From assembly GCF_001006305.1 (NCBI RefSeq), contig NZ_LBHJ01000001.1, positions 744,001 to 808,000 on the forward strand: 64,000 bases of DNA, written 5' to 3'. Shown here piece after piece: positions 41,757 through 50,809 of this stretch; the stretch's first letter is position 1, and the number at the start of each line of letters is the position of its first letter. A program made the position numbers and the translations under genes. The DNA comes from Silvibacterium bohemicum (lineage in GTDB: Bacteria; Acidobacteriota; Terriglobia; Terriglobales; Acidobacteriaceae). The notes under the pieces were generated by a model. It did not search any database. It saw only the letters and a program-made list of their open reading frames with translations, and was not told the origin of the DNA.

Positions 41757-41760
41757 ATGA

Positions 41761-41788
41761 AGAGATGGAGACAGAGAGATGGAGACAG
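41761..41788 (+). repeat. 14 bp tandem duplication at a ribosome-binding site
   Basis: AGAGATGGAGACAG occurs twice head to tail immediately before the aldo/keto reductase ATG at 41790; each copy brings a GGAG, so the gene has two possible Shine-Dalgarno sites. Confidence 0.7.
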
Positions 41789-41789
41789 A

Positions 41790-42674
41790 ATGACGAATGC
41801 AGAAAAACTCGGCGGCGCCTTCACGCTGCCTGGCACCAAATTCACTATCAAGCGCATGGGTTATGGCGCGATGCAGCTTGCCGGTACTCACGTATGGGGT
41901 CCGCCTAAAGACCGGGCGCAGGCCGTTGCCGTTTTGCAGGAGGCATTGGAATCAGGCGTCGATCACATCGACACCAGCGATTTTTATGGTCCGCATGTCA
42001 CCAACCAGATCATCCGCGAAGCGCTGCATCCCTATCCCGATCACCTCGTCATCGTGACGAAGGTAGGCGCGGTGCGCGGTGACGATGCCTCATGGAACCC
42101 CGCGCACAGTCCGGCCGAGCTGACGAAGGCGGTGCATGACAACCTGCGCAACCTCGGAGTCGAAGCGCTGGATGTCGTCAACCTGCGCGTGTGGGGGGAG
42201 ATCCACAAGCCAGGCAAGGAATCGATTGAGCCCCAGTTCACGGCGCTTGCCGAGCTGCAGAGGCAAGGATTGATCCGGCACCTCGGGATCAGCAACGCGA
42301 CCGCGGCGCAGATCGAGGAGGCGCGCGCCATCGCGCCCGTGGTCTGCGTGCAGAACCACTACAATGTCGCCCACCGCGAAGACGACACGCTGGTCGACGA
42401 CCTCGCAGCGAAGGGCATCGCCTATGTGCCGTTCTTCCCGCTCGGCGGATTCACCCCGCTTCAATCCACGGAGCTTTCGGATGTCGCCGCGAGCCTCGGC
42501 TACACGCCGATGCAGGTAGCGCTCGCCTGGCTGCTGCACCGCTCGCCCAACATTCTGCTGATCCCCGGCACGTCGTCACCCGGCCACCTGCGTGAGAACC
42601 TGGCTGCGGCCGAGCTGGCGCTCTCTTCAAAAGCGCTGGAACAGTTGAACTCGATCAGCGTTTCCGCGGCATAA
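41790..42674 (+). CDS. aldo/keto reductase
   Basis: 294 residues from the ATG at 41790, the first with the GGAG-containing repeat ahead; the 11-codon extension upstream translates the repeat itself. The (beta/alpha)8 barrel shows GYGAMQLAGT, the catalytic Asp-Tyr segment VDHIDTSDFYGPHVTNQII, Lys in LVIVTKVGAV and the NADPH-binding end IPGTSSPGHLRENLAA. It reduces carbonyls with NADPH; substrate is unknown. The divergent TetR gene probably controls it. The stop codon lies in another 14 bp tandem duplication. Confidence 0.92.
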   Translation: MTNAEKLGGAFTLPGTKFTIKRMGYGAMQLAGTHVWGPPKDRAQAVAVLQEALESGVDHIDTSDFYGPHVTNQIIREALHPYPDHLVIVTKVGAVRGDDASWNPAHSPAELTKAVHDNLRNLGVEALDVVNLRVWGEIHKPGKESIEPQFTALAELQRQGLIRHLGISNATAAQIEEARAIAPVVCVQNHYNVAHREDDTLVDDLAAKGIAYVPFFPLGGFTPLQSTELSDVAASLGYTPMQVALAWLLHRSPNILLIPGTSSPGHLRENLAAAELALSSKALEQLNSISVSAA

Positions 42675-42699
42675 GAGTTAAGCCCTAAGAGTTAAGCCC
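42672..42699 (+). repeat. 14 bp tandem duplication across the aldo/keto reductase stop codon
   Basis: TAAGAGTTAAGCCC is present twice in direct succession; the first base triplet is the stop codon. It abuts the terminator hairpin at 42695. Confidence 0.7.
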
Positions 42700-42714
42700 G
42701 GAGCAATCCGGGCT
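42695..42714 (+). terminator. terminator hairpin left of the double-hairpin repeat
   Basis: AGCCCGGA-GCAA-TCCGGGCT, an 8 bp perfect stem. A near-duplicate (GCCCGGA-GTCA-TCCGGGC followed by TTT) occurs at 42844-42864, on the other side of a dispersed repeat. Confidence 0.6.
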
Positions 42715-42741
42715 ATGACCATTAACAAAGCCGTTCTCTTC

Positions 42742-42843
42742 GAAGGGTATGGCCTTCAGGCCGCACGTAAAGCAAGCGAATGTGAGTGGCTTTAGCCACC
42801 GAGGGAAAGCCACATCGCGCTACAAAGGTTTGTCATCAATCTC
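42742..42843. repeat. dispersed ~105 bp double-hairpin repeat, copy A
   Basis: It contains GGCCTTCAGGCC and GTGGCTTTAGCCAC hairpins and shares about 80% of positions by eye with the copies at 49038 and 50661. It is flanked on both sides by near-identical terminator stems. Confidence 0.75.
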
Positions 42844-42864
42844 GCCCGGAGTCATCCGGGCTTT
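42844..42864 (+). terminator. terminator hairpin right of repeat copy A
   Basis: A 7 bp perfect stem, GCCCGGA against TCCGGGC, is followed by TTT. It pairs as a near-duplicate of the hairpin at 42695-42714. Confidence 0.55.
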
Positions 42865-48985: not shown

Positions 48986-49011
48986 AAGAGGCCGGCTTAT
49001 GCCGGCCTCTT
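48986..49011 (+). terminator. terminator of the glycine-zipper protein gene
   Basis: AAGAGGCCGGC and GCCGGCCTCTT pair perfectly around TTAT. It lies 76 bases beyond the stop codon. Confidence 0.7.
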
Positions 49012-49037
49012 TGGCTTCCCGCAAAGTCTTGTTCGCA

Positions 49038-49152
49038 AGTCTTGGTCTTGGAAGGGTACGGCCTTCAGGCCGTACGTAAATTAAGCAAGATGAGTGCGGC
49101 TTCAGCCGCTGAGGGAAAGCCCGCTCGCACCGCAAATGTTCGTATCAATCTC
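49038..49152. repeat. dispersed ~105 bp double-hairpin repeat, copy B
   Basis: Hairpins TACGGCC-TTCA-GGCCGTA and GCGGC-TTCA-GCCGC are seen, with the shared 3' part (GAGGGAAAGCCCGCTCGCAC). The terminator at 48986 is on its left; no second copy of that stem is seen on its right. Confidence 0.75.
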
Positions 49153-50626: not shown

Positions 50627-50644
50627 CCCGCTGCACGCAGCGGG
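50627..50644 (+). terminator. terminator hairpin left of repeat copy C
   Basis: CCCGCTGC and GCAGCGGG pair with a 2-base loop 66 bases after the dienelactone hydrolase stop. The same core stem recurs in the palindrome at 50772-50809. Confidence 0.55.
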
Positions 50645-50660
50645 CTCCGGTTACTGACAA

Positions 50661-50771
50661 AGTCATGGTCTTGGTAGGGTACGGCCTTCAGGCCGTACGT
50701 AAATCAAGCAAATGAGTGTGGCTTCAGCCACTGGGGGAAGGCCCCGCTCACACTGCAAAGGTTCGTCATCA
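50661..50771. repeat. dispersed ~105 bp double-hairpin repeat, copy C
   Basis: It is closely similar to copy B: TACGGCC-TTCA-GGCCGTA and GTGGC-TTCA-GCCAC hairpins are followed by a GCCCCGCTCACACTGC stretch. It lies exactly between two near-duplicate terminator hairpins. Confidence 0.8.
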
Positions 50772-50809
50772 AACTCAAAAGCCCGCTGCATGCAGCGGGC
50801 TTTTGAGTT
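50772..50809. terminator. 38 bp perfect palindrome, bidirectional terminator
   Basis: Two 19-base arms (50772-50790 and 50791-50809) are perfectly complementary, with A/T-rich outer ends; it can terminate both the hydrolase transcript and the convergent propeller lipoprotein gene. Confidence 0.85.

What the first reader, a model, noticed from the sequence alone, without database searches (positions are those of the whole stretch)
42695..42864. Dispersed double-hairpin repeat flanked by duplicated terminator stems (copy A)
Repeat copy A sits between AGCCCGGA-GCAA-TCCGGGCT and GCCCGGA-GTCA-TCCGGGC. The two hairpins have the same stem and differ in the loop. Insertion into a terminator with duplication of it, or integration guided by the hairpin, would explain this. 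It would be a mobile REP-like element that targets intrinsic terminators and leaves a functional one on each side.
Basis: partly seen in the sequence, partly recalled or inferred. Interest (0 to 1): 0.7.

Follow-up and report, generated by a model that had tools for sequence, protein, structure and literature searches.

The report
Mobile element that duplicates terminator hairpins
A short mobile DNA element in this bacterium jumps into the hairpin that ends a gene's transcript and leaves a copy of the whole hairpin on each side of itself, as its full-length relatives do in several other groups of bacteria, so the shape of the target rather than its sequence seems to decide where it lands and what is duplicated.

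Summary
Copy A (42716-42842) lies between two hairpins with the same stem (42695-42714; 42844-42861). The genome has 22 matching places. The stem differs from copy to copy but agrees within a copy: 0 of 20,000 left/right re-pairings reach the observed similarity. At copy L002, none of 7 same-genus relatives has the element or the stem twice; each has one terminator-like hairpin there. So this is a MITE that inserts at terminators and duplicates the whole hairpin.

The driver is probably not RAYT/IS200. Both ends match, with the same left/right asymmetry, an IS1182-family DDE insertion sequence from the same bacterial family. In that clade 78 of 85 IS ends abut a complete hairpin (4% of control windows), and 22 copies carry 17-33 bp duplications centred on the hairpin dyad within half a base. 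Filled/empty pairs on Rhizobium plasmids show it directly.

This is the whole-stem-loop duplication that Wan et al. 2017 drew as a possible pathway; for IS1272 they reported replacement.

The parts
42695..42715 (+). Left copy of the duplicated terminator hairpin (stem-loop 42695-42714; duplication read as 21 bp)
42716..42842 (+). MITE copy A, 127 bp, between the two hairpins
   Evidence: Family of 22 places; aligned copies
42716..42729 (+). Left terminal repeat of copy A (diverged from the family consensus AGGTTGCTGACAAAG)
   Evidence: Alignment A2; matches the left end of IS1182-type L193
42828..42842 (+). Right terminal repeat (GTTTGTCATCAATCT)
   Evidence: matches the right end of L193
42751..42762 (+). 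First internal hairpin GGCCTTCAGGCC
42843..42863 (+). Right copy of the duplicated hairpin (stem-loop 42844-42861), followed by a short T-run
41757..42674 (+). Upstream ORF, 305 aa, whose terminator is the likely target (reads like an aldo/keto reductase; recalled, no family search run)
49026..49151 (+). Second copy in the window (L008); hairpin on the left only, 48988-49009
   Evidence: G001 has a hairpin and no element at the site
50648..50775 (+). Third copy in the window (L003), between same-stem hairpins 50627-50644 and 50781-50800

Best explanation
The repeat is a MITE of a hairpin-targeting group of IS1182-family insertion sequences. A transposase, supplied by an autonomous relative not found intact in this assembly, inserts the element symmetrically about the dyad of a terminator hairpin. 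It joins the element's 3' ends at the two outer feet of the hairpin on opposite strands, and gap repair then leaves the whole hairpin on both sides. Shown by sequence: the family, its ends, hairpin duplication, sites without the element, an autonomous IS with the same ends, and the same duplication in that IS's clade. Inferred: the strand chemistry, that this clade moved this MITE, and the effect on transcription.
For: Own-flank pairing beats all 20,000 re-pairings. At the L002 site 7 of 7 relatives lack the element and the second stem. MITE consensus ends match IS1182-type L193 at 14 of 16 and 14 of 17 bases, with the same left/right difference; L193 scores 488 bits to NF033551, cut-off 270, and carries DDE domains. 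In L193's clade 78 of 85 IS ends abut a hairpin against 550 of 13,462 control windows, and 22 of 63 loci with both flanks carry duplications of 17-33 bp, dyad-centred within 0.5 base in 22 of 22. Its Acidobacteriota sister L226 has a 22-bp hairpin duplication. Six of six Rhizobium/Aminobacter plasmid copies fetched have duplicated hairpins, and three have filled/empty pairs.
Against: 13 of 22 MITE copies show no clear duplication. No intact transposase in the own genome: two fragments under the cut-off. Copy A's own empty site is not shown. The twin-hairpin core occurs in many genomes of the order with other ends, and in 29 single copies from there flank pairing was weak (605 of 20,000 re-pairings as good). 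17 of 39 non-Paenibacillus IS loci with both flanks gave no duplication; several have a different hairpin at each end, some had poorly placed ends.
Confidence: 0.87

Rival explanations
1. Symmetric duplex reader: the transposase prefers palindromic duplex DNA and has a long, flexible stagger; no hairpin is extruded.
For: Duplications are centred on the dyad in 22 of 22, which any two-fold symmetric enzyme on a palindrome would give. Duplication length does not follow the maximal pairing in the joined site (Pearson 0.28). Long duplications without known hairpins exist in the IS1202 group, 24-29 bp (PMC10045372, passages).
Against: Length varies 17-33 bp in one clade, with edges 0-2 bases from the stem found inside the duplication in 21 of 22 (that test is confined to the duplication). 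Relatives duplicate only a loop, and IS1272 replaces stem-loops (PMC5678879); a folded target explains all three.
Confidence: 0.3
2. REP/RAYT: a Y1 (IS200-like) transposase moves the twin-hairpin repeat.
For: Two twin palindromes inside the element; two Y1 transposase genes in the genome; twin-hairpin core in 93 of 150 genomes of the order.
Against: No element-like sequence in the stretches fetched around the two Y1 genes; terminal inverted repeats and target duplication are features of DDE elements (recalled); the ends match an IS1182 element. The core could still have had a REP origin before it acquired these ends.
Confidence: 0.04
3. Tandem terminators were there first, or arose by slippage, and the element merely sits between them.
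For: Hairpins are prone to slippage (recalled); the loops of the two copies differ in most pairs.
Against: 7 of 7 relatives at the L002 site lack a second copy of the stem; three Rhizobium IS copies have single-hairpin empty partners with flanks 92-100% identical.
Confidence: 0.03
4. An IS1202- or IS1634-type element with long fixed or random duplications is the parent.
For: Both groups make long duplications: IS1202 group 24-29 bp, IS1549/IS1634 8-514 bp (PMC2266710, passages).
Against: The IS with matching ends is IS1182 type; IS1202-family ends are TGT..ACA (PMC10132070, passages), which these are not; no defined target was found for the long-duplication IS1202 members in that paper.
Confidence: 0.03

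Closest known systems
IS1272 and TnSha1 (IS1182 family), staphylococci: PMC5678879 (outline and passages seen), PMC4923244 (passages seen)
   Same: IS1182 family; target is a hairpin, often a terminator, with no shared primary sequence; a copy with tandem left ends is reported (IS1272L), like the tandem left halves of some MITE copies here.
   Different: They replace or partly delete the hairpin and report no target duplication; here the whole hairpin is duplicated. Wan et al. drew whole-stem-loop duplication as pathway b of a model.
ISBspe1-like IS1182 element (Alkalihalophilus pseudofirmus OF4 plasmid pBpOF4-01, annotated so)
   Same: Same clade; 20-bp hairpin duplicated (L250); same kind of ends.
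   Different: Full IS with transposase; other phylum; lower identity (58%).
Paenibacillus sp. 2.1 IS1182-type copies and G008 L220
   Same: IS1182-type transposase; insertion at palindromes.
   Different: Insertion in the loop with 4-6 bp duplicated between the arms (L220 and 13 of 20 Paenibacillus loci with arm score 6.5 or more; no control run).
REP/BIME elements with RAYT (recalled)
   Same: Internal twin palindromes, intergenic, many copies.
   Different: Here terminal inverted repeats and a target duplication, and no Y1 gene link found.
IS1202 group, long target duplications (PMC10045372, PMC10132070; passages seen)
   Same: Target duplication over 20 bp.
   Different: Other ends; no palindromic target reported for the long-duplication members in the passages seen.

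Membership tests
MITE (non-autonomous DNA transposon) | Short, multicopy, no transposase gene | tested here: met
   118-144 bp as delimited; 22 places; too short for a transposase
MITE (non-autonomous DNA transposon) | Terminal inverted repeats shared with an autonomous element | tested here: met
   Imperfect inverted repeats; 14/16 and 14/17 to L193
MITE (non-autonomous DNA transposon) | Target site duplication | tested here: met
   9 of 22 copies clear; sites without element in relatives
MITE (non-autonomous DNA transposon) | Demonstrated movement by a transposase in trans | not testable with these tools
   Needs an experiment
IS1182 family (the autonomous relative L193) | Transposase matches the family model over its cut-off | tested here: met
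   NF033551, 488.5 bits against 270; PF13751, PF05598, PF01609
IS1182 family (the autonomous relative L193) | Palindrome or hairpin target | tested here: met
   78 of 85 ends in the clade abut hairpins
IS1182 family (this MITE) | Own transposase | tested here: not met
   None in the element; two sub-threshold fragments in the genome. Filed as a MITE with IS1182-type ends, not as an IS1182 element
REP/RAYT system | Repeat flanks or adjoins its Y1 transposase gene | tested here: not met
   No element-like match around the two Y1 genes in the stretches fetched
REP/RAYT system | No target duplication | tested here: not met
   Hairpin duplication; the feature itself is recalled
IS1202 family | TGT..ACA ends and IS1202-type transposase | tested here: not met
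   Ends CAGACTG..CAGTCTG and IS1182-type transposase; defining feature from PMC10132070 passages

The most novel reading that the evidence does not exclude
A DDE transposase whose target duplication is set by the fold of the target rather than by a fixed stagger. It cuts at the two feet of an extruded terminator hairpin, so that any terminator is a site and the hairpin is duplicated whole. The outward T-runs that remain let host transcripts into the element but stop transcripts leaving it. Within one transposase family, three structural outcomes would then be read from the same target: hairpin replaced, loop duplicated, whole hairpin duplicated.
Probability: 0.5. Interest if true: 0.75.

Novelty: new variant of a known kind. 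Interest (0 to 1): 0.62.

Why it matters
Most DDE transposons duplicate a short target of near-constant length. Here the duplicated unit is a complete terminator hairpin of variable length, in IS copies from three phyla (Acidobacteriota, Pseudomonadota, Bacillota) and in a MITE. It is natural evidence for an outcome that had been drawn as a possibility in a model of hairpin-directed transposition. It explains how an element can use terminators as sites without destroying them, and gives related enzymes with different outcomes for asking how a transposase reads DNA structure.

Tried and rejected
A convergent pair of near-matches to the ends at C13:239017-240888, taken as a possible autonomous copy: no transposase-like ORF by eye in the ORFs of at least 120 aa. 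IS1634 and IS1202 as parents: dropped once L193 was found. rve-domain proteins in the genome (5 hits): listed, flanks not examined. Rfam: no match at E<=1 in the 2.5 kb searched. Terminator rule scan at copy A: 0 found; the T-run behind the right hairpin is short. Correlation of duplication length with hairpin length: Pearson 0.98 (21 copies) when the stem is sought inside the duplication, which is circular, and 0.28 in the joined site; I rest nothing on the first. Twenty-nine single copies from other genomes of the order: flank pairing too weak to use (605 of 20,000). The L020 site in 8 relatives was not informative; A and L003 are syntenic on one side only. Orientation of the IS relative to the terminator: no clear preference (6 against 4 of 22). 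A per-contig strand bias of the MITE was not explained.

Literature: all 10 searches of the held library were used. In the listings and passages that I saw, none describes whole-hairpin duplication by an IS as an observed fact; listings were capped, and most subscription papers are not held. One review was not held. PMC10969869, PMC4596501, PMC3196728: passages seen, not used as evidence.

Full report
What is there. Copy A is a 127-bp element at 42716-42842 between two hairpins with the same stem and different loops; both fold strongly. The own genome (6.46 Mb, 25 contigs) has 22 matching places, three of them in this window: A, 49026-49151 and 50648-50775. The copies share an imperfect terminal inverted repeat (AGRTTGCTGACAAAG on the left, GTTCGTCATCAATCT on the right) and two internal hairpins.

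The hairpins are a duplicated target. Stems differ between copies and agree within a copy. Against 20,000 re-pairings of left and right flanks, none reaches the observed sum (520 against mean 331, maximum 452). Nine of 22 copies are clear; one further top-ranked pair (L022) is discounted as a motif artefact; one (L016) is probable; the rest show one hairpin, a degraded second one, or none. Read by eye, the duplications are about 21 to 28 bp (A 21, L006 24, L020 25, L004 27, L015 28) and run close to the element's ends.

Sites without the element. For copy L002 the gene on the left is conserved (75-88% identity at its end) in seven same-genus relatives. Behind it none of the seven has the element or the stem twice. 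A scan finds one terminator-like hairpin at the equivalent place in six; in the seventh (G001) there is one with a longer loop, seen by eye. Two of the seven have a second, unrelated hairpin further on. At the L008 site relative G001 has one imperfect hairpin, seen by eye, and no element. A and L003 are syntenic on one side only, so their own empty sites are not shown.

Who moves it. The genome has two Y1 transposase genes, without element-like sequence in the stretches fetched around them. Of 200 genomes of the family, 70 have an IS1182-type transposase at E<=1e-20, 34 over the cut-off. The best hit, L193, ends in TCAGACTGCTGACAAAGG on the left and TCAGACTGCTGACGAACC (reverse complement) on the right: the same left/right difference as the MITE consensus, with 14 of 16 and 14 of 17 bases matching (2.6e-7 and 1.1e-6 for one random comparison each). 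Its right end abuts a terminator-like hairpin; its left end is a contig edge. The own genome has only two fragments under the cut-off, so the MITE is probably an orphan.

What that clade does. A scan with the L193 protein found 215 relatives, of which 80 were kept. I put 76 through the duplication test; 13 lacked an end or a flank, leaving 63. Of these, 24 are Paenibacillus copies without a long duplication; 20 of the 24 were tested separately, and 13 of 20 look like insertions in a hairpin loop with a 4-6 bp duplication between arms (arm score at least 6.5; no control run). Of the other 39, 22 carry duplications of 17-33 bp, and all 22 are centred on the hairpin dyad within half a base, the hairpin being sought in 25 bases on either side. 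Of the 17 others, several have a different complete hairpin at each end, and some had poorly placed ends; the three Dechloromonas copies look like hairpin pairs exchanged among copies. Of 85 ends tested in 51 loci (Paenibacillus left out; 17 ends not testable), 78 abut an anchored hairpin, against 550 of 13,462 control windows, which overlap. In a 35-row tree L193 groups with the Acidobacteriota copies L225 and L226, and L226 has a 22-bp hairpin duplication. Whole-hairpin duplication is not one clean clade: the Paenibacillus rows sit inside it (2 changes), and the program warns of long branches.

Filled and empty pairs. Six plasmid copies in Rhizobium and Aminobacter, of 25 rows listed out of 1,948 records, were fetched, and all six have duplicated hairpins. 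For three, five related plasmid stretches with flanks 92-100% identical have one such hairpin and no IS; in two of the three sites the empty hairpin differs from the filled one by a base or two.

Mechanism. DDE enzymes join the element's 3' ends to staggered positions of the target, and repair copies what lies between (established knowledge, restated in PMC5678879). If those positions are the outer feet of a hairpin, the whole hairpin is duplicated. Wan et al. 2017 drew this as pathway b of a model for IS1272, beside the stem-loop replacement that they reported and a loop-only duplication, pathway c (PMC5678879; outline and passages). Furi et al. 2016 report partial deletion of the hairpin by TnSha1/IS1272 (PMC4923244; passages). 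The copies here fit pathway b; L220 and Paenibacillus fit pathway c. That the enzyme sees an extruded structure is inference. An enzyme reading palindromic duplex with a flexible stagger is not excluded, since length does not follow the full possible pairing.

Consequence. In the 22 IS insertions, at least 4 T in 8 bases lie outside the right copy in 19 and at least 4 A outside the left copy in 16; on the inward sides the same holds in 1 and 0. So each hairpin mostly keeps only its outward T-run. Transcripts should enter the element and stop on leaving it (inference). In the MITE the pattern is less sharp: L002's left copy is followed by TTTT, and A's right copy by only TTTC.

Novelty. Hairpin targeting by IS1182 elements is known. 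Whole-hairpin duplication as a frequent outcome in a multi-phylum clade, with filled/empty pairs and a MITE that shows it, was not seen in the ten literature searches. ISfinder's entry for the family (recalled: direct repeats of 0-60 bp, palindromes) suggests that curators have met such cases. I rate it a new variant of a known kind.

Noticed in passing
L105, L108, L114 and other copies (order): The twin-hairpin core occurs in 93 of 150 genomes of the order (E<=1e-3) with other ends, for example GGAANCTCTGATTAAGTC, sometimes next to CTAA. The same core seems to have been carried by elements with different terminal repeats.
   Followed up: partly
L011, L012, L014, L017, L083 (302960-303224 of C1): Several MITE copies carry one or more extra left halves in tandem, which recalls the tandem left ends of IS1272L in PMC5678879.
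   Followed up: no
L303 (G147:C10:8617-8738): A twin-hairpin element with the same ends in another genus, with what looks by eye like a diverged hairpin duplication. The end-pair pattern was found in 5 of 398 family genomes; only this one and the own genome look like the element.
   Followed up: partly
Paenibacillus sp. 2.1 loci L260-L282, L284: 24 kept IS1182-type copies in one genome; 13 of 20 tested look inserted in hairpin loops with loop-only duplication.
   Followed up: partly
L251, L253, L254 (Dechloromonas); L230-L233 (Marinobacter): IS copies whose left and right hairpins match those of other copies or contigs, as if recombined between copies or broken in assembly.
   Followed up: no
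Own genome, contigs C1, C13, C16: MITE copies lie mostly on one strand of each contig (C13 and C16 all minus; C1 mostly plus). Gene direction or replication could be the cause.
   Followed up: no
window 42672-42699: TAAGAGTTAAGCCC is repeated in tandem just before the left hairpin of copy A.
   Followed up: no
L220 (G008:C12:75898-77163): A same-genus IS1182 element sits in a hairpin loop: AAAGGCGTCC-CGAA-IS-CGAA-GGACGCCTTT.
   Followed up: yes
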